Source: Truepera radiovictrix DSM 17093
GTDB taxonomy: Bacteria > Deinococcota > Deinococci > Deinococcales > Trueperaceae
Assembly: GCF_000092425.1 (NCBI RefSeq)
Contig: NC_014221.1
Location: forward strand, 1,121,001 to 1,185,000
Reading direction: 5' to 3'
DNA: 64,000 bases
Shown: in pieces, positions 28,589 to 57,236 of the stretch
Numbering within the stretch: position 1 is the first letter of the stretch
How the letters are laid out: every line of letters starts with the position of its first letter
Program-made: the position numbers and the translations under genes
The notes under the pieces: model-generated
The model's database searches: none
Told to the model about the DNA's origin: nothing
The model's input: the letters and a program-made list of their open reading frames with translations, nothing else

Positions 28589-29392
28589 CTAGTGCGAAGG
28601 CCCGTCCCCCCGTGCCTCCGGCGCGCCGGCGCGCGTGTCCGACCAGACGCGGCCGTTACGCAGCTGCACGGTGCGCTGCGCGCGCGCGGCGACCTCGGCG
28701 CTATGCGTCACCGTCACGAGCGTCGCGCCCCTCGCGTGCACCGCCTCCAAAAGCTCTAAGATGCGCGCGCCCGTGTCGCTGTCTAAGTTGCCGGTCGGTT
28801 CGTCGGCCAAGAGGAGCTGGGGGCGGATGACGAGCGCGCGGGCGATGGCCACGCGCTGCTCCTGACCGCCCGAGAGCTCGCTCGGCATGTGCTCGGCGCG
28901 CTCGGCGAGCCCGACGCGCGCTAACATCTCGAGCGCGCGTGCCCGCCGCTCCTTGCGGCTCACGCCCGCGTAGCGCAGCGGCAGCGCCACGTTGCGCCAC
29001 GCCGAGAGGTGCGGCAGCAGGTTAAAGCTCTGAAAGACGAAGCCGACCGTGCGGCCGCGCAGCCGGGAGCGTTCGGCGTCGCTCAAACCGGTCGTATCGC
29101 GGCCCAAGAGCTTGAGGCGCCCCGCGGTGGGCGCGTCCATCAGCCCCATGAGGTAGAGCAGGGTGGACTTGCCCGCCCCCGAGGGGCCGACGAGCGCGAC
29201 GTGCTCGCCGCGCTCGATGCGGAGCGTGACCCCCTGGAGGGCGTCCACCATCCCCTGGCCTTTGGGGTAGCGCTTGGCGACGTCCTGGAGCTCGAGCACG
29301 GGCTCCGGGGGGGTGGGGCTCACGGCGGCGACGTGTGGTGCAGGGTGTGGTGCGGCGTTTAGTGCGGTGTGGGTGTTGCGTGTGATGCGCAT
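28589..29392 (-). CDS. ABC transporter ATPase, MacB/LolD type
   Basis: About 267 residues. Walker A GPSGAGKS (with [13 protein letters not shown]), Q-loop [15 protein letters not shown], signature [15 protein letters not shown], Walker [13 protein letters not shown] and H-loop THSAE are complete, so the enzyme should hydrolyse ATP. It belongs to the subfamily that drives mechanotransmission or export through FtsX-type permeases. Start 29392 has GAGGAG 7 nt upstream; the longer frame would run into the permease gene. It lies 19 nt after the permease stop as last gene of the operon, so the two form one transporter. Confidence 0.92.
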
Positions 29393-29411: not shown

Positions 29412-31643
29412 CTAGGCTTCGCGCTCGCGCACCGCATCAGCCGGCAGCAGCCGCGCGGCGGCGAGCGCCGGACCCGCGCCGAAAAGGGCGGCTACGAAGA
29501 ACGCGAGGGCGACGGCGAGAGCGAGGGCGGGGAGGTCGATGAGAAAGGGCACCCCCTGGAGCCGCGCGGCGAGGTAACCCAAACCGACGCCCAAGAGCAA
29601 CCCGGCGGCGCTCGAGAGGGCGGCGAGGCGCAGCGCCTCGCCGAGGAACTGGGCGAAGATGTCGGTGGTGCGGGCGCCGACGGCGCGCCGCACGCCGATC
29701 TCGCGCACCCGTAAGGAGAGTGCGACGAGCATCTGCGCGGCCAGCCCGCCGCCGCCCAGGAGCAGCAAGGCGGCGGCGAGCGCGCGGTAGACCGCTGCGA
29801 GGCTCAACAGGGCGCCCCGCACCTCCGGGTAGAAGTCCTCGGCGCGCATGACCGTAAAGGGGATGCGGTCGTCGCCGTAGCGGGCGTTCAGCACGTCGGC
29901 CCCCGTTTGCAGGGCCGCCGCCACGTCCCGCCCCGGCGCGACCTCGACCAAGATGCTGCCGAACCCCTGCGCGCGCACCATCGGCCCCGGAAAGAGCACC
30001 TGCTCGTCGCGCAGCCCGCCGGGGATATTCTGTGTGCCGCTCCGAAACACGCCGACGACCGTCCAGGCGCGACCGAACGCATGCACCTCGGCACCCAGGG
30101 GGTCGGCCTCGCCGAAGGTCTCAGCGGCGATGAGCTGACCCAGGGCTACCTCGGCGGCGTCCGGTGCGGGCCAGCGCCCCGCCAAGAGTTCCGCGCCGAT
30201 CATCTCGGCGAAGGGTTCCTCGGCGGCTTGCCAGGTCGAGAGGTAGGAGCCCGCCGGACCCTCGAGGGTCGAGAGCGTAAAGGCGCGTTTGTACGCCGTG
30301 CGGGAGAACCCCTCGGCGGCGGGGCTCGCTAGCAGCGCTTCGTAGTCGCGGCGGGTGAGCGAGGTGAAACCGCGTGGGTCGCCCAAGCCCTCGGTCAGGA
30401 CGCTCGCATAGGTGCCGATGCGCTCGCCCACCCCGCCCAGGATGCGACGCGTCTCGGCCTCCGCCGCGCGCGCGGTCGTCGCCTGCACGACGAGCCCCGC
30501 GACCCCCAACGCGAGCCCCGCTCCGGCGAGCAGGAGCCGGCGCTGCGGGGCGCTCGAGGCGCCGCCACGCATCACCTGTGCCGGGGGCTGCCGCGCCGCC
30601 CACAGTGCGGGGAAAAAAGCCGCTACGGCGACCAGCAGCAGCAAAGGCGGCGCGAGCAGCAGGAGCGACCGGAGCCCTGGCGCGGCGCTCACGCCGGTCG
30701 CGCGTGTCAGCAGCGCCGCCCCCAGGTAGGCCAAGGGGGGCGCGAGGACGAGCCCCGCCACGCCCCAGGGGAGCGCCCCCCACAGCTCGCCCAAGGTCAC
30801 GTCCTGCCGGGTCGCGCCGACCGCGCGCCGCACGCCGAGCTGCCGCACGCGCGAAAGGGCACGCGCGAGGTAAAAGGCCAGTAGGTTTGCCCCGGCGCTT
30901 AGCAGCACGGCCGCGACGCCGAAGCCGAGCGCCCCGCCCAGGAGCCGCCCGACCGTTTCGCGCAGCTCGGCGCCGTACTGCTCGGTCAGCGGCAGGACGC
31001 GGTAGCCCTCTATCCCCTCGCGTTCTAGCCACGCCCGCAGCGCCGCGCCCGCGCTCCCGAACGCCTCGGGAGTGGTCTCGAGGAAGAGAAAGCTCGGCCC
31101 CCCCTCCGGGCCGAAGTAGGCTTCGAGTGGCACGAAGATGGCACCGTCTAGTTCCGCGTCCACCCACCCGCGCGCGCGCACGCTCTCCAGCACCCCCACG
31201 ACGCGGTACGGAAAGCCGCCCGCCTCCACGGTCTCCCCCAACATCTCGCGGAGGTTCGCGCCGACGACCGCCTCTGTGGGCGCTTCAAAGGGGCGGCCCG
31301 CCGCGAAGGCGAAGCGGCGCACGCCGAAGAACGCCGCGTCCACCCCGATGAGCGGGTACGAGACCTCCTGCGTTACGAGCCGCGAGACGTTCGTGCTGAG
31401 CGCCACCCCGACCACGCCGGGCAGTGTCGCCAACGCGCTCAGGTCCCCCGGCAGGGGGTCGAGTGGCATAGAGGGCCGCTCCGGGTCTAAGTCCGGCTCC
31501 ACGAGATAGGTGTGTTGGCCCACCGTCTCCCGCAGGGCGCGCAGGGTGTCGCTCGAGCGCTCCCAGAGCCCCAGCGTTACGCCTAGCACCCCCCCGGCGA
31601 GGGCGACCGAGAGGAGCGCGACGAGGTTGCGAAGGGCGTTCAC
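29412..31643 (-). CDS. FtsX/MacB-type ABC permease
   Basis: A 743-residue permease. One N-terminal membrane segment (about 5-25), a MacB-like extracytoplasmic domain (about 45-225), an FtsX block of three segments (about 235-350), a further segment (about 370-390), a second extracytoplasmic domain (to about 600) and a final FtsX block of three segments; this two-repeat layout is that of MacB-related exporters. It begins 6 nt after the preceding gene with GTG and no strong ribosome site, implying translational coupling. Cargo is unknown; the cysteine-rich peptide encoded upstream is the natural candidate (inference). Confidence 0.88.
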   Translation of the reverse strand: MNALRNLVALLSVALAGGVLGVTLGLWERSSDTLRALRETVGQHTYLVEPDLDPERPSMPLDPLPGDLSALATLPGVVGVALSTNVSRLVTQEVSYPLIGVDAAFFGVRRFAFAAGRPFEAPTEAVVGANLREMLGETVEAGGFPYRVVGVLESVRARGWVDAELDGAIFVPLEAYFGPEGGPSFLFLETTPEAFGSAGAALRAWLEREGIEGYRVLPLTEQYGAELRETVGRLLGGALGFGVAAVLLSAGANLLAFYLARALSRVRQLGVRRAVGATRQDVTLGELWGALPWGVAGLVLAPPLAYLGAALLTRATGVSAAPGLRSLLLLAPPLLLLVAVAAFFPALWAARQPPAQVMRGGASSAPQRRLLLAGAGLALGVAGLVVQATTARAAEAETRRILGGVGERIGTYASVLTEGLGDPRGFTSLTRRDYEALLASPAAEGFSRTAYKRAFTLSTLEGPAGSYLSTWQAAEEPFAEMIGAELLAGRWPAPDAAEVALGQLIAAETFGEADPLGAEVHAFGRAWTVVGVFRSGTQNIPGGLRDEQVLFPGPMVRAQGFGSILVEVAPGRDVAAALQTGADVLNARYGDDRIPFTVMRAEDFYPEVRGALLSLAAVYRALAAALLLLGGGGLAAQMLVALSLRVREIGVRRAVGARTTDIFAQFLGEALRLAALSSAAGLLLGVGLGYLAARLQGVPFLIDLPALALAVALAFFVAALFGAGPALAAARLLPADAVREREA

Positions 31644-31649
31644 GCGCGC

Positions 31650-32231
31650 TTACGGCCCCGATACTGCCGCGAGCGCTTGCCGCAGCGAGGCGTCCAGGGT
31701 CTCTTCCGCCGCCACTAAGATGAGCGCCGACTCGACGCGGTTGTCTTCGCCTATCACGGCGGCTTGAAACGATCCCCAGCGCAGCACGTCGCTAAGTTCT
31801 TCTGGCGAATCTTCCGAGAAGAAGGTCCAATCGGGGAAAGCTGCTTGGAGTGCGTCCCGATTTGCGTCATTCATCGCAAACGCCACCCCCTGCACGCCGT
31901 AGCGCTCGAGTAAAGGCGGCAGCGTCTCGAGCAAAAAGCGCGTATTGGAGGCCGGATGGTCGAACTCGGCGTAAGGCACCTCAATGCGGGTCTCTAAGGC
32001 AAACGCCTCGTCCACCACCCAGAGCAGATACCGGCCCACCCCGGGCAGTTCGGCGGGTGTGCCGGCGGCGCTGTAGAAGGTGCCCGCTAGTTCCGTCCCC
32101 GGCGTCATGAGGGGGTTGTTGTCGGGGAGCGCGAAGATTTTCGGCGGGAGGTCCGTCTGGGTCGTGGCGGCCCCGGCGGTGCCCAGGGAGACGAGCAATC
32201 TTAGCGGGCGCGACGTCAAGCTCTCTGTCAC
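31650..32231 (-). CDS. Short paralogue of the adjacent secreted protein
   Basis: About 193 residues from GTG 32231 (AGGGGG upstream), with a short N-terminal hydrophobic stretch that may be a signal peptide. It resembles the neighbour at 32242 at both ends: GVGRYLLWVVDEAFALETR against TTGRYLLWVEDAVFALDTR, and LPPLLERYGVQGVAFAMND...AAFPDW against LPELLERYGVPGVGLVTGD...AAFPDW. The ~150-residue middle of the neighbour is missing, so this is a tandem duplicate that lost the centre. No known family recognised. It lies between its paralogue and the exporter permease, with 10-nt and 6-nt gaps. Confidence 0.75.
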   Translation of the reverse strand: MTESLTSRPLRLLVSLGTAGAATTQTDLPPKIFALPDNNPLMTPGTELAGTFYSAAGTPAELPGVGRYLLWVVDEAFALETRIEVPYAEFDHPASNTRFLLETLPPLLERYGVQGVAFAMNDANRDALQAAFPDWTFFSEDSPEELSDVLRWGSFQAAVIGEDNRVESALILVAAEETLDASLRQALAAVSGP

Positions 32232-32241
32232 GGCGTTCCCC

Positions 32242-33312
32242 CTAGGGAGCGCCCCCGGCACTCTGCAATGCGAGGTTGAGGAGCGCTGGGGGCGGGTCGC
32301 CGGGTTGGGCGGGGGAGAGGAGAAAGGCCGCCTCGACCTCCCCAGATCCATTCACGACGAGCGCTTGCGTCTCTAGAAAGCGCAAAAAAGGCTCAGGTGC
32401 GCCGATGGCGACGAACTGCCAATCGGGAAACGCCGCTTCGAAGGTGGGCAGAACTGCTTCATCCCCGGTCACGAGCCCGACGCCCGGCACGCCGTAACGC
32501 TCTAGGAGCTCGGGCAGCGCTTCCAGCACCGCGCGCTGCTCGGCGGCGATGGCGCGGTCGTTGTCCGTCCCCTCTCCAGAAGCGTCTACGGCGAGGGCGC
32601 TGACGCGCATGAGGAGTGCGGGAGCGCTCACCGGCAGCGCCTCCTCTGGCACCTGCGTCCCGCGCGCCGCCGGTATGGGGGTGAGCGGGGGTTCATCGCC
32701 CGCCAAAAAGGTGCGCGCAGCCTCCGTGACGAGCGGCACGAGCCCCTGCGCCTCCCAGATACCGGGTAGCAGGAAGCGGTAGGCGACCCTCTGCCCTTCC
32801 ATGAGGTAAAGCCCCGACAGGTTGGTGTCCCGCGCGAAGCCGCCCGACGAGACCTGTAAGGGAAGCGCCTGCGCGTCGTCGAACAAGACCTGCGCCACCG
32901 GCAGCCGCGCCGCTACCTCCGCGCGCTCGGCGTCCCCCGGCAGCGCCCCGAGCCGCCCGTAGAGGAGCGCTACGCTCTCCCCCTCGAGCTGAGGCCAGAG
33001 GGTCGTCACGGGGTTAACAAGGGTCGCGGCGGGATCGGCTTGGGGGTTAAGGTCGGCGAGCGGCAGCGCGTCCCGCGTGTCGAGGGCAAAGACTGCGTCC
33101 TCGACCCAGAGGAGATAGCGCCCGGTGGTGGGCAGCGTTTCCTCAGTGTCCTGAGCGTTTGTGAAGCTTATTTCGAGAAAGCTTCCCGGTGTGAGTGCAG
33201 CGTTTTCAAAAGGCACGGCGATAACATTCTGGGCACCTGCCCAACCAGATGCTATAAGTAAACATAGCGTCCAGTGCGTTCTCCGTTTTGCTGAAAGAAA
33301 GAAGTGCAACAC
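32242..33312 (-). CDS. Secreted protein of unknown function, long paralogue
   Basis: A 356-residue protein with a clear signal peptide (about residues 1-27, LCLLIASGWAGAQ). N-terminal module with GRYLLWVEDAVFALDTRD, a middle module (about 100-230) and a C-terminal module with LLERYGVPGVGLVTGD and FEAAFPDWQFVAIG. The GTG start is set by AGGAGG 6 nt upstream. Its only visible relative here is the shorter neighbour. A hairpin terminator separates it from the peptide gene upstream. Function unknown; binding or handling of the exported product is a guess. Confidence 0.75.
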   Translation of the reverse strand: MLHFFLSAKRRTHWTLCLLIASGWAGAQNVIAVPFENAALTPGSFLEISFTNAQDTEETLPTTGRYLLWVEDAVFALDTRDALPLADLNPQADPAATLVNPVTTLWPQLEGESVALLYGRLGALPGDAERAEVAARLPVAQVLFDDAQALPLQVSSGGFARDTNLSGLYLMEGQRVAYRFLLPGIWEAQGLVPLVTEAARTFLAGDEPPLTPIPAARGTQVPEEALPVSAPALLMRVSALAVDASGEGTDNDRAIAAEQRAVLEALPELLERYGVPGVGLVTGDEAVLPTFEAAFPDWQFVAIGAPEPFLRFLETQALVVNGSGEVEAAFLLSPAQPGDPPPALLNLALQSAGGAP

Positions 33313-33354: not shown

Positions 33355-33395
33355 GAAACCAGTTGCAGGCATGCTAGGTTGTGACAACTGGTTTC
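33355..33395 (-). terminator. Hairpin between the peptide gene and the exporter genes
   Basis: On the minus strand, an 11-bp perfect stem GAAACCAGTTG / CAACTGGTTTC (33395-33385 with 33365-33355, 19-nt loop) is followed by a pyrimidine-rich TCTTACTTCTTT. It is positioned to end most transcripts after the peptide gene and let some through. Confidence 0.6.
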
Positions 33396-33406: not shown

Positions 33407-33640
33407 TTACACTACACAGAATGATTGACAAGTTCCGCAGCTTGGAGTTCCCGTCCGAGCGTTACACTGCGAGTCATAGAAGACAGGGGCACTGCAGTTT
33501 CTCGACCGCCCCTGTCCGCAAAACTGGCAGAAGAAGATTCTGCTTGGACCGCAATTCGTGTTTGCGAAAGCGGGCGAGAGTCCGATGAACCCGGATAGGA
33601 TAGCAAAAACCAGAAGAACCTTTTTGCAGACTTTTCTCAC
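33407..33640 (-). CDS. Cysteine-rich secreted peptide
   Basis: A 77-residue precursor with a signal peptide (about residues 1-26, ending SPAFA) and a mature region of ~51 residues holding eight cysteines (30, 38, 41, 49, 59, 68, 71, 75), including CQFC and CGTC, ending FCVV. The even number suggests disulfides. The GTG start has GGGGAGG 7 nt upstream and overlaps by 4 nt the gene for a tandem thioredoxin-fold protein, so the two are made together. GC content is well below that of surrounding genes, suggesting acquisition. No family is recognised; a bacteriocin-like peptide or cofactor-bearing small subunit are possibilities. Confidence 0.75.
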   Translation of the reverse strand: MRKVCKKVLLVFAILSGFIGLSPAFANTNCGPSRIFFCQFCGQGRSRNCSAPVFYDSQCNARTGTPSCGTCQSFCVV

Positions 33641-34395
33641 CTTTTAACCTCCCCTTCTGTTGCCACGAGCGCTTCCGCAACCTCTCGAAAGTCCTCGCGG
33701 TAACCTAGGTCGACCCAGGTAACTAAACCCTCTTTTAAATACACCATTGAGGGAACCCCCGGCAGTTGCCACGCAATCGCTGTATCTCTAGCATGCTCGT
33801 GCTGGCTCGGACACCCTTCAAAAAGAGGCTCTTCACCTCTTGTGACAAGCACCGTGATATTCAAAGCGGTGTCTCGGCAAACTTCAGCTAGAACGTCACG
33901 CCCTCTCAAGCAAGCTTCGCAGCTCTCTCGGTAGAACACCAATAAGCCTGTGTAGTTTGCAAAGACCCCTTCAACGCGCTCTCCTATCGCAATGTTGTAG
34001 GCGTAGTCTAATAGGCGCGTTCCGTTCGCGACGTCTTCAACCATCATCCGCACTTCAGACGTCGCGATGGGTTCGGTGTACCCCTCGGCAATCTGACCAT
34101 CTTTGAGGACAAGAACTGTCGGTGTTGTTTCAACCCTCAAGGTGCGTGCAACTAGCCTGTGAGACGTGTCCTGCAAATAAGGTTCATAGTCGAGTTCGGG
34201 TTCAGAGCCGATGTAGGTTACGGGGAGCCCTTCAAGCTCTTGTCTGAGGACTTCGCACGCCTTGCAGTCGGCGCTAACAAAAGCAAGTACATGTACGCCG
34301 CTCTCGAGCCCCAGACCATAAGGCACCATTTGCGCAAGACCAATGTGGAGTAGCATGAAGCCCATCGTAATGACGTTGAACCGAGCTAAGCGCAT
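33637..34395 (-). CDS. Secreted tandem thioredoxin-fold protein
   Basis: A 252-residue protein with an N-terminal signal or anchor (about 4-22) and two thioredoxin-like domains. Domain 1 has Cys44-Lys-Ala-Cys47 and a cis-proline-type TTP (Pro92); domain 2 has Cys159-Glu-Ala-Cys162 and GVPS (Pro215), plus Cys173 and Cys195. Two complete CxxC sites outside the cytoplasm suggest a disulfide oxidase or isomerase. ATG 34395 is chosen for AAGGAGGGGG 7 nt upstream. The adjoining cysteine-rich peptide is the obvious substrate (inference). Low GC like the peptide gene. First gene of the operon. Confidence 0.82.
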   Translation of the reverse strand: MRLARFNVITMGFMLLHIGLAQMVPYGLGLESGVHVLAFVSADCKACEVLRQELEGLPVTYIGSEPELDYEPYLQDTSHRLVARTLRVETTPTVLVLKDGQIAEGYTEPIATSEVRMMVEDVANGTRLLDYAYNIAIGERVEGVFANYTGLLVFYRESCEACLRGRDVLAEVCRDTALNITVLVTRGEEPLFEGCPSQHEHARDTAIAWQLPGVPSMVYLKEGLVTWVDLGYREDFREVAEALVATEGEVKR

Positions 34396-34514
34396 CGCTA
34401 CCCCCTCCTTCTGCAACCTTGAAAACCATAAAAGCTTGTCTTTCGTTTGCCTAAAAGCTAGCAGTTTTTAACCCGCTGTACAAGTTATCGGTTCACGCCT
34501 TAAGCGTGAACCCT
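34396..34514 (-). promoter_or_regulatory. Promoter region of the peptide/thioredoxin operon
   Basis: On the minus strand TTGTAC, 17 nt, TAGCTT forms a plausible promoter before the thioredoxin gene. Three nt past the regulator's stop lies a perfect 9-bp inverted repeat GGTTCACGC-ttaag-GCGTGAACC (34490-34512). With no T-run behind it, it may be an operator rather than a terminator. Confidence 0.45.
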
Positions 34515-35060
34515 TCACGCCCCTGCCAACATCTCCTGCCAGAGCGAGAGCAAGTCGAAGTAGGCGAGCGCGAGCTGCACGCGGTTCTCTACGCCTACCT
34601 TCTCGCGGACGCTCATGACGAGGTTAGAAACGCGCCCCCCGGAGAGCCCCAGGCGGCGGGCGATAGCCGCGTTCGTGTGGCCCGTGGCGAGAAGCCGGAG
34701 CACGGTGCGTTCGCGTTCGGTGAGGGGGTCGGGGGGGAGCGGCGGCCCTTCATAAAAGGTCTCGCCGCGAGCGACGCGCTGCGCGAGGTCGGCAAAATCC
34801 ACGGGTTCGCGCCCCACGACGGCGAGGCCCTGGGGGCCGAAGCCGAGCAGGTCGTGGAGGTAGAAAGGCGAGCGGTTGGCGGTGACGACGAGGGTCGGGG
34901 CGCTGGAGCGGGCCACTGCGATGAGCTGCGCGAGGGCGTAACCGGGGCGGTCGTCGACGATGAGGGTCAGCGGCCGAGCGGGCGGGCGCGCGGCGAGCAG
35001 CGCCGCGACCCGGGCCCGCGTCGCGCTGGTGTCGGCGTAGATGCGCACGGCCTCCTGCAC
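34515..35060 (-). CDS. LuxR/NarL-type transcriptional regulator
   Basis: A 181-residue protein. The C-terminal part (about 112-170) is a GerE/LuxR helix-turn-helix (LTERERTVLRLLATGHTNAAIARRL ... VSNLVMSVREKV; the recognition helix follows GLSGG). The N-terminal ~105 residues look receiver-like but lack clear phosphorylation-site aspartates in the usual place, so signal input is unclear. GTG 35060 follows TAAACT by 6 nt: probably leaderless. It is directly upstream of the thioredoxin/peptide operon on the same strand and divergent from tilS-tadA; control of the operon is inference. Confidence 0.85.
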   Translation of the reverse strand: MQEAVRIYADTSATRARVAALLAARPPARPLTLIVDDRPGYALAQLIAVARSSAPTLVVTANRSPFYLHDLLGFGPQGLAVVGREPVDFADLAQRVARGETFYEGPPLPPDPLTERERTVLRLLATGHTNAAIARRLGLSGGRVSNLVMSVREKVGVENRVQLALAYFDLLSLWQEMLAGA

Positions 35061-55586: not shown

Positions 55587-57236
55587 ATGCGGTTGAAGTG
55601 GGAGTCACTTGCGAGAGCGGTTTTTTGGACTATTGGAGTGCTGGTTCTGAATGCGTGTAGTAGCGGAATTCAACAAGATCCACCTGCCGGCGAACCGGGC
55701 CTTGAACTCTCAACTCAGGCAGCTACTTCTCATAACGTCCCCAACTCGGCAAGCGACGCAGAAGAATGGAACGGCGTGACCTACACTATGAGCCCTGTTT
55801 TGGAACTTGGTTACAAGGACCAGTCAACTGGGCTTGCACAGACGACGGGGGTGCGTTTTAGTGGAGTCAGCATACCGCGAGGGGCCACGATAACCTCTGC
55901 TTACATCGACTTCACAGCCGTAACTAGCCAGTCAGATGCGACCTCGCTGCGGATCCATGGCCAAAATGTCGGTAGCGGCGGACCGTTTGTGGAGGGTGCG
56001 AGTAACGGCGTCACGGGACGCGTGAAGACCTCCAACAGTGTCACCTGGTCACCGGAGCCCTGGACTGGTGGTTTCAAGTACTCTACCCCAAACCTTGCCC
56101 CCATAGTCAGAGAAATCACTAGCCGGTCAGACTGGGTTCAAGGGGCAGCGATGGTCTTCATCATTAAAGGTACGGGGCAGCGCAAAGCTCACGCGTTTGA
56201 TGCTGGCAACAACTTGCAGCCTGTGTTAAGAGTGACTTACCAAACCTCATTGCGCACCTGTTTGCCAAGTAAACCAACTGAAGTGCTGAGCGGAGTGTAC
56301 AATTCTAGCCTCAAACGTACGGGTAATGGCGAGACTGCCTTAAGCATCAATGCGGTCAGTGCTAAAATTGCTCCTGTATTTACAGAGCTTGGCCCTTTAG
56401 CAAGGTTGCGGTACTACAAATCGCTTTGCTTGAGCGGCGGGGTCTATACGCTTAATGAGGCGGCGGATCCTGAAGTCAAAGGAGATGACTCAAGCTGGGA
56501 AAAAGTCTTTCACCGAGGCACTGTGGGCGTGGAGTTCTGGGATTCACCGAGCACCGTGATCGAGCAGGTCGCAATAGAACTGTCTGGTGATGGCATCTCG
56601 CCACGAGGTTACAAAAACCATAACTGGTTGATTCGAGACTCTTACATTAGACACGCGGGCGATGATGGTGTTGAGAACGATTGGATGACGTCCGGAACCA
56701 TCGACGGCGTACTTATTGATTGGGCCTATACAGGCATTTCCTGTAGAGCTGGTGAGAGCCAAAGGAACGACTTGTCCAGTATCACCCCCGGTACGATAAC
56801 GATCAAAAATAGCCTCATCCGCCTTAGGAAACAGAAGTGGGGTTACAATAACGCAACTAATTTGCACAATCATTTGTTCAAGTGGGAACAGGATCAACCG
56901 GATAAAGGCTACGTCGCCAAGAAGGGGTGTAAGTTAAGGCTCATAAACAACGTGTTTATGGTCGACCAGAATGCGGGTTATTTGGATCCAGCTCAAAATC
57001 CCAAAGTCAACTATGGGCAGGTGCTCGTCGAAAGTAGCAACAACATCCTGATTTGGAGTGGACCAGAAAGCGCTTTGCCGAATAGTTATAAACAAGCCAA
57101 TCTACCGTCGGGTTTTACGCTCAAAATGGGATCTGAAGGCGCAAGCATTTGGAACACGCGTCGTAACCAGTGGTTTGATTACTACAAGCAGTTCGGCCTC
57201 TTCCAGAATTACAGAACGTTTCAAAAGCTCTATTAG
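55587..57236 (+). CDS. Secreted lipoprotein with beta-rich N domain and right-handed beta-helix-like C domain
   Basis: A 549-residue protein with a lipobox (VLNACSS, Cys24), so anchored after export. Residues ~50-230 resemble the DNRLRE-like beta domains of surface proteins (IPRGATITSAYIDFTA, IKGTGQRKAHAFDAG, LQPVLRVTYQ). The second half (about 290-500) has repetitive strands (WLIRDSYIRHAGDDGVENDW, GVLIDWAYTGISC) as in pectate-lyase-like beta helices; carbohydrate binding or cleavage is a guess. GC is clearly lower than the genome, as is its upstream region from about 55440, suggesting transfer. GAAAGAGAGG precedes ATG. Confidence 0.7.
   Translation: MRLKWESLARAVFWTIGVLVLNACSSGIQQDPPAGEPGLELSTQAATSHNVPNSASDAEEWNGVTYTMSPVLELGYKDQSTGLAQTTGVRFSGVSIPRGATITSAYIDFTAVTSQSDATSLRIHGQNVGSGGPFVEGASNGVTGRVKTSNSVTWSPEPWTGGFKYSTPNLAPIVREITSRSDWVQGAAMVFIIKGTGQRKAHAFDAGNNLQPVLRVTYQTSLRTCLPSKPTEVLSGVYNSSLKRTGNGETALSINAVSAKIAPVFTELGPLARLRYYKSLCLSGGVYTLNEAADPEVKGDDSSWEKVFHRGTVGVEFWDSPSTVIEQVAIELSGDGISPRGYKNHNWLIRDSYIRHAGDDGVENDWMTSGTIDGVLIDWAYTGISCRAGESQRNDLSSITPGTITIKNSLIRLRKQKWGYNNATNLHNHLFKWEQDQPDKGYVAKKGCKLRLINNVFMVDQNAGYLDPAQNPKVNYGQVLVESSNNILIWSGPESALPNSYKQANLPSGFTLKMGSEGASIWNTRRNQWFDYYKQFGLFQNYRTFQKLY

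What the first reader, a model, noticed from the sequence alone, without database searches (positions are those of the whole stretch)
33407..34395. Translationally coupled Cys-rich peptide and double-CxxC thioredoxin-fold protein
GTGA overlap ensures co-production. The peptide has eight cysteines after its signal peptide and the partner two complete CxxC active sites outside the cytoplasm, so a dedicated oxidase/isomerase is plausible. MauA with MauD is a loose precedent for a Cys-rich protein needing its own thioredoxin-like helper.
Basis: partly seen in the sequence, partly recalled or inferred. Interest (0 to 1): 0.8.

Follow-up and report, generated by a model that had tools for sequence, protein, structure and literature searches.

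The report
Secreted Cys-rich peptide with thioredoxin partner
A small secreted peptide with eight cysteines is made together with its own thioredoxin-like helper inside a rare, undescribed six- to seven-gene cassette shared by a few relatives; it most likely makes, folds and protects against a disulfide-rich antibacterial peptide, although no activity has been shown.

Summary
In detail: on the minus strand, a 252-aa exported thioredoxin-fold protein with two CxxC motifs (34395-33637) overlaps by GTGA an exported 77-aa peptide (33640-33407) with eight cysteines after its signal peptide. It is not chance. In two relatives several divergent peptides each precede their own X. Six cysteines are invariant across six intact peptides. 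One relative lost the peptide and most of the thioredoxin but keeps X, permease and ATPase. This patchy, decaying, multi-copy pattern resembles bacteriocin loci more than an enzyme subunit such as MauA. Best reading: a Sec-exported disulfide-rich peptide, probably antibacterial, matured by its own thiol oxidoreductase, with X and the ABC proteins for self-protection or release. The disulfide-helper role is likely; bacteriocin function and immunity are inferred. The second CxxC is invariant; the first is incomplete in two relatives, so "two complete active sites" is not a family feature.

The parts
34515..35060 (-). LuxR-type (GerE) regulator, 181 aa, first gene of the cassette
   Evidence: GerE 51 bits; 32-40% identical to regulators at the G099, G067 and G042 loci with shared SPxYLxDLL and YxGPxL motifs
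34490..34512 (.). 23-bp palindrome GGTTCACGC-N5-GCGTGAACC upstream of the thioredoxin gene; possible operator or terminator of the regulator gene
   Evidence: the repeat finder I5; role not tested
33637..34395 (-). exported tandem thioredoxin-fold protein, 252 aa, CxxC at residues 44-47 and 159-162
33407..33640 (-). exported Cys-rich peptide, 77 aa, GTG start, 8 Cys after the signal peptide
33355..33395 (.). RNA hairpin GAAACCAGTTG-N19-CAACTGGTTTC between the peptide and X1, no T run; possible attenuator or mRNA stabiliser
   Evidence: fold -22.5 kcal/mol, z -2.3, 7 of 200 shuffles as good
32242..33312 (-). X1, 356-aa secreted protein of an undescribed family; C-terminal half tentatively thioredoxin/peroxiredoxin-like without catalytic Cys
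   Evidence: relatives-only profile E 5e-16; no Pfam, NCBIfam or PDB sequence match; low-confidence model, best folds peroxiredoxins Z about 6
31650..32231 (-). X2, shortened paralogue of X1 (start uncertain, GTG 32231 chosen)
   Evidence: matches X family model positions 18-81 and 265-366; relatives-only profile E 1.8e-9
29412..31643 (-). duplicated MacB/FtsX-type ABC permease, 743 aa
   Evidence: MacB_PCD 89 bits and FtsX 73 bits, two stretches each; 37-55% identical to the G067, G042 and G010 cassette permeases
28589..29299 (-). MacB/LolD-type ABC ATPase (start uncertain; longest ORF starts at 29437)
   Evidence: ABC_tran 119 bits; LolD/MacB/YbbA-type models 220-242 bits

Best explanation
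The two genes are the core of a cassette that makes a small, Sec-exported, disulfide-rich peptide, most likely an antibacterial (bacteriocin-type) peptide. Steps: a LuxR-type regulator controls the operon (inferred). The thioredoxin-fold protein and the peptide are translated in coupled fashion (gene overlap with a ribosome-binding site is shown; coupling is inferred from it) and both are exported by Sec (predicted from signal peptides by inspection). Outside the inner membrane the thioredoxin-fold protein, through its invariant second CxxC, forms or reshuffles the peptide's disulfides and is recharged by the cell's DsbB (inferred). X, a secreted protein tied to each peptide gene, and the MacB/FtsX-type ABC pair then protect the producer from the peptide and/or release it from the periplasm (inferred).
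For: Thioredoxin relatives in 5 other genomes of 111; an exported Cys-rich peptide reading frame, intact or broken, follows the thioredoxin gene in G067, G042, G099 and G092, with junctions from a 1-base overlap to a 5-base gap where measured. Six of the peptide cysteines are invariant in six intact peptides, with spacing CxxC-x(6-8)-C ... CxxC-x(3-5)-C at the C-terminus; 205 of 200,000 shuffles of the mature peptide keep this pattern. G067 has three peptides and G042 two, each followed by its own X. X homology to the window is strong without using the window in the profile (E 5e-16). G010 keeps X, permease and ATPase intact but has only a truncated thioredoxin and no detected peptide, as expected for retained self-protection. 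The peptide frame is interrupted next to a transposase gene in G099 and both genes are frameshifted in G092. Peptide genes are low in G+C at every locus (window peptide 51%, thioredoxin 53%, permease 73%). Own genome has DsbB. Precedents: PedC with pediocin (PMC4919988); Sec, DsbA and MacAB for enterotoxin STII (PMC5985334); Sec-dependent lactococcin 972-type loci with predicted immunity and transporter genes (PMC11796350).
Against: No activity, expression or disulfide data. No known bacteriocin, immunity or oxidoreductase-accessory model matches. Sequence evidence for peptide homology alone is weak (relatives-only profile E 0.53 genome-scaled; 14 of 5000 shuffles score as high). No MacA or TolC gene in the cassette. 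Frameshifts in G092 could be assembly errors. The peptide model is uninformative (pLDDT 43) and the X model is weak (pLDDT 53). The G010 assembly is in 180 contigs with 9% contamination.
Confidence: 0.5

Rival explanations
1. The cassette makes a secreted disulfide-rich peptide with a signalling or surface role rather than a killing role; X is its receptor or carrier and the FtsX-type transporter senses or traffics it.
For: LuxR-type regulator at five loci; MacB-type transporters also serve in sensing and export of protein-like signals (PMC5985334); X is secreted and peptide-linked.
Against: Multiple divergent peptides in one genome, patchy presence (6 of 111) and frequent decay fit competition loci better; no sensor kinase in the cassette.
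Confidence: 0.22
2. MauA/MauD-like: the peptide is a Cys-rich subunit of an enzyme and the thioredoxin its maturation factor.
Against: No match to MauA or MauD models; no enzyme subunit in the conserved cassette; peptides vary strongly outside the cysteines.
Confidence: 0.04
3. The peptide is a secreted metal-binding (zinc-knuckle-like) peptide and the thioredoxin keeps its CxxC pairs reduced for metal loading, as CcdA-linked thioredoxins do for cytochrome maturation.
For: CxxC pairs; weak profile similarity to zinc C1/RING-type chains (E 0.017); a DsbD/CcdA-type reductant supplier is in the genome.
Against: Exported to a compartment served by a DsbB-type oxidase; the similarity is what short Cys-rich profiles give by chance; no metal transport or enzyme genes in the cassette.
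Confidence: 0.12
4. The thioredoxin is a general extracytoplasmic redox protein and the linkage to the peptide is incidental.
For: Thioredoxin folds are common; no direct interaction data.
Against: Same adjacency in five genomes from three families, always with the peptide directly downstream; in the order searched, the thioredoxin family occurs only with cassette genes or peptide frames.
Confidence: 0.07

Closest known systems
Bacteriocin thiol-disulfide oxidoreductases (PedC of pediocin PA-1, BlpGst, BdbA/BdbB of sublancin)
   Same: Exported thioredoxin-fold CxxC protein encoded with a disulfide-containing peptide; PedC raises bacteriocin potency (PMC4919988).
   Different: Here two tandem thioredoxin domains, a Sec-type signal peptide on the peptide rather than a double-glycine leader, a diderm host, and no match to those families.
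STII, DsbA and MacAB-TolC pathway of E. coli
   Same: Small disulfide peptide exported by Sec, oxidised in the periplasm, then handled by a MacB-type ABC transporter (PMC5985334).
   Different: The oxidoreductase is dedicated and encoded in the operon; the permease is a duplicated 743-aa form with separate ATPase; no MacA or TolC in the cassette; the X family is extra. No relationship between the peptides is claimed.
Lactococcin 972-type bacteriocin loci
   Same: Sec-dependent peptide encoded next to predicted immunity and ABC transporter genes (PMC11796350); the ATPase resembles TIGR03608 (186 bits).
   Different: ATPase below the TIGR03608 cut-off (255), permease does not match the family's immunity model, peptide is Cys-rich and unrelated, and there is a thioredoxin and X.
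MauD with MauA
   Same: Helper of disulfide formation encoded near a Cys-rich exported protein.
   Different: No Mau family match, no enzyme, different neighbours.

Membership tests
Bacteriocin thiol-disulfide oxidoreductase (PedC/BlpGst kind) | exported thioredoxin fold with CxxC encoded with a Cys-containing exported peptide | tested here: met
Bacteriocin thiol-disulfide oxidoreductase (PedC/BlpGst kind) | match to the curated bacteriocin transport accessory family model | tested here: not met
   NCBIfam scan gave only generic thioredoxin, TraF-like and PDO models, all below cut-off
Bacteriocin thiol-disulfide oxidoreductase (PedC/BlpGst kind) | required for correct disulfides or potency of an antibacterial peptide | not testable with these tools
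   needs expression and mass spectrometry
Lactococcin 972-type system | peptide of the lactococcin 972 family | tested here: not met
   no Pfam or NCBIfam match at E up to 1
Lactococcin 972-type system | ATPase over the TIGR03608 cut-off and a match to the associated immunity membrane protein model | tested here: not met
   186 bits versus 254.85; permease matches only ADOP and MacB models
MauA/MauD | peptide matches methylamine dehydrogenase light chain, thioredoxin matches MauD | tested here: not met
   no matches at E up to 1; whole-genome PF02975 search silent but its control was silent too
MacAB-TolC exporter | MacB-type periplasmic core and FtsX domains | tested here: met
   two MacB_PCD and two FtsX stretches
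MacAB-TolC exporter | MacA adaptor and TolC encoded with it | tested here: not met
   none among the cassette genes at any locus read; elsewhere in the genome not tested
Thermophile protein disulfide oxidoreductase (PDO, TIGR02187) | over the family cut-off, tandem thioredoxin with two CxxC | tested here: not met
   14 bits versus 185; the protein also has a signal peptide
Bacteriocin | antibacterial activity and specific immunity | not testable with these tools
   only indirect genomic signs

The most novel reading that the evidence does not exclude
A new class of disulfide-rich bacteriocins in the Deinococcus-Thermus lineage, each matured by a built-in tandem thioredoxin and paired with a cognate X protein, possibly a catalytically dead thioredoxin-fold protein, that acts as a peptide-specific immunity protein or chaperone, with a MacB-type pump completing release or protection in a diderm cell.
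Probability: 0.3. Interest if true: 0.75.

Novelty: new variant of a known kind. Interest (0 to 1): 0.55.

Why it matters
Neither the peptide family nor the X family is in Pfam or NCBIfam, and I found no paper in the library searched that describes peptide bacteriocins of this kind in the Deinococcus-Thermus lineage. If the reading holds, it gives a compact natural system in which a thioredoxin folds one known peptide substrate, with ready pairs of divergent peptides and partners for testing specificity, and a source of disulfide-rich peptides from thermophiles and radiation-resistant bacteria.

Tried and rejected
Two genome-contig scans: the first found nothing, the second recovered the G067 contig plus Massilia thioredoxins that look generic. 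Plasmid search found no relative. PDB sequence searches with the peptide and X gave nothing convincing. AlphaFold of the peptide from 4 sequences failed (pLDDT 43). The X model is low confidence; its peroxiredoxin-like matches (Z about 6) are below the level that separates real from common folds, and hhalign found no link between X and the thioredoxin, so the thioredoxin-like reading of X is only a lead. Co-divergence of peptides and X: r 0.89, but 39 of 720 permutations reach it and one close pair drives it, so it is not used as proof. Weak peptide hits in other genomes were not found again by the family profile and were set aside. PADLOC gave no defence system; only the regulator's HTH matched a CARF model. 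The G099 ABC exporter upstream of its regulator (ABC_membrane type, next to lpx-like genes) was judged unrelated. A MauA search of the genome had a silent control.

Full report
What is there. The window lies at 1,121,001-1,185,000 of a single 3,260,398-base contig; the size fits Truepera radiovictrix (from memory, not tested). On the minus strand, a 252-aa protein (34395-33637) is followed, with a 4-base GTGA overlap, by a 77-aa peptide (33640-33407). A GGGGAGG ribosome-binding site lies inside the end of the first gene, a few bases before the GTG. Both have signal peptides by inspection: VLLVFAILSGFIGLSPAFA|N for the peptide, and a hydrophobic N-terminus ending LAQ for the thioredoxin, a feature conserved in relatives. 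The peptide has eight cysteines in its 51 mature residues and is unique in the window for that combination.

The thioredoxin protein. Residues 36-109 match Thioredoxin_2 above its cut-off and residues 147-223 match a TraF model just above its cut-off. The two halves align with each other with CxxC and cis-Pro in register. Across four intact relatives the second CxxC and two more cysteines in that domain (C173, C195) are invariant, whereas in the G042 and G067 homologues the first motif is CDDA or CEAA. The second domain is therefore the more likely catalytic one, and the finding's 'two complete active sites' holds for this protein, G099 and G092 only.

It is a conserved cassette. A profile search of the 111 held genomes of the order finds the thioredoxin in five others. 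Reading around them shows the same plan: regulator, thioredoxin, peptide, X, permease, ATPase. G042 has peptide-X, then thioredoxin, peptide-X, permease, ATPase and a convergent regulator. G067 has a tandem duplication: thioredoxin, peptide, two X reading frames, permease, ATPase, then peptide-X, a thioredoxin remnant, peptide-X, permease, ATPase and regulator. In G099 and G092 the regulator, thioredoxin and a Gly-rich Cys-containing peptide are present. G067 corresponds to contig JALSJG010000167.1 of a Thermaceae metagenome-assembled genome.

The peptide family. Six intact peptides share six invariant cysteines and a common framework, CxxC-x(6-8)-C early and CxxC-x(3-5)-C at the C-terminus, while the rest varies; all pairs but one are 24-37% identical. 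A profile built only from the relatives ranks the window peptide first of 1212 window ORFs, but with a genome-scaled E of 0.53, and 14 of 5000 shuffles of its mature part score as high. Position in the cassette carries most of the weight: the same kind of peptide sits at the same junction in five genomes. With all six in the profile, only three genomes have intact members.

X and the transporter. X1 (32242-33312) has no match in Pfam, NCBIfam or PDB sequences, but a relatives-only profile finds X1 at 5e-16 and the shortened X2 at 1.8e-9. A low-confidence model (pLDDT 53) has a thioredoxin-like order of strands and helices in its C-terminal half, and its best structural matches are peroxiredoxins at Z about 6. 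X1's only cysteine lies in its signal peptide. This suggests, but does not show, a redox-dead thioredoxin-fold protein. The permease carries two MacB_PCD and two FtsX stretches and is 37-55% identical to its counterparts.

Signs of a competition locus. Only 6 of 111 genomes have the thioredoxin and 4 have X. The G099 peptide frame ends next to a transposase gene, with another Cys-rich reading frame on the far flank; I read the two flanks separately and did not join them. In G092 both the thioredoxin and the peptide are frameshifted. G010 retains X, permease and ATPase but only 47 residues of the thioredoxin and no detected peptide. Peptide genes are low in G+C everywhere (48-61% against 62-67% for the surroundings), and the window's thioredoxin-peptide module (51-53%, GC3 55%) stands out from the regulator, permease and ATPase (72-73%, GC3 89-93%). 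Such patchiness, multiplicity, decay and retained protection-type genes are usual for bacteriocin loci (general knowledge).

Mechanism. Shown: gene overlap, export signals by inspection, conserved linkage, conserved cysteines, DsbB and a DsbD/CcdA-type protein elsewhere in the genome, and no VKOR found. Inferred: the thioredoxin forms or reshuffles the peptide's disulfides; X and the ABC pair protect against or release the peptide; the regulator controls timing. The precedents cover each step separately: PedC for pediocin (PMC4919988), and STII through Sec, DsbA and MacAB (PMC5985334). Lactococcin 972-type loci have predicted immunity and transporter genes whose roles are untested (PMC11796350). 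MauD is a weaker analogue, though mauD/mauE homologues have been noticed in candidate RiPP clusters (PMC7794033).

Verdict. The system works like known bacteriocin-oxidoreductase pairs but is not a member of any tested family, hence a new variant of a known kind.

Noticed in passing
L029 1355-13676: G067 (Thermaceae MAG) carries a tandem duplication of the whole cassette with three different Cys-rich peptides, one thioredoxin remnant running into a peptide gene, and two permease-ATPase pairs.
   Followed up: partly
L032 10146-14620: G010 keeps intact X, permease and ATPase after a 47-residue thioredoxin remnant with no peptide: a natural case of the protection-type genes surviving alone.
   Followed up: partly
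L028 10210-11980: A transposase gene lies directly after the Cys-rich peptide frame of G099; Cys-rich reading frames lie on both flanks. No perfect terminal repeats of 10 bases or more were found.
   Followed up: partly
window 33355-33395: 11-bp perfect inverted repeat between the peptide and X1 without a T run, possibly an attenuator or stabiliser as in some bacteriocin operons.
   Followed up: partly
window 34490-34512: Palindrome GGTTCACGC-N5-GCGTGAACC between the regulator and thioredoxin genes, a candidate operator.
   Followed up: no
window 55587-57236: Low-G+C (about 48%) gene for a 549-aa putative lipoprotein (signal ending in LNACSS), the most A+T-rich stretch of the window; looks acquired.
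   Followed up: no
window 34515-35060: LuxR-type regulator with a short N-terminal part that matched no Pfam receiver domain; conserved SPxYLxDLL and YxGPxL motifs across cassettes.
   Followed up: partly
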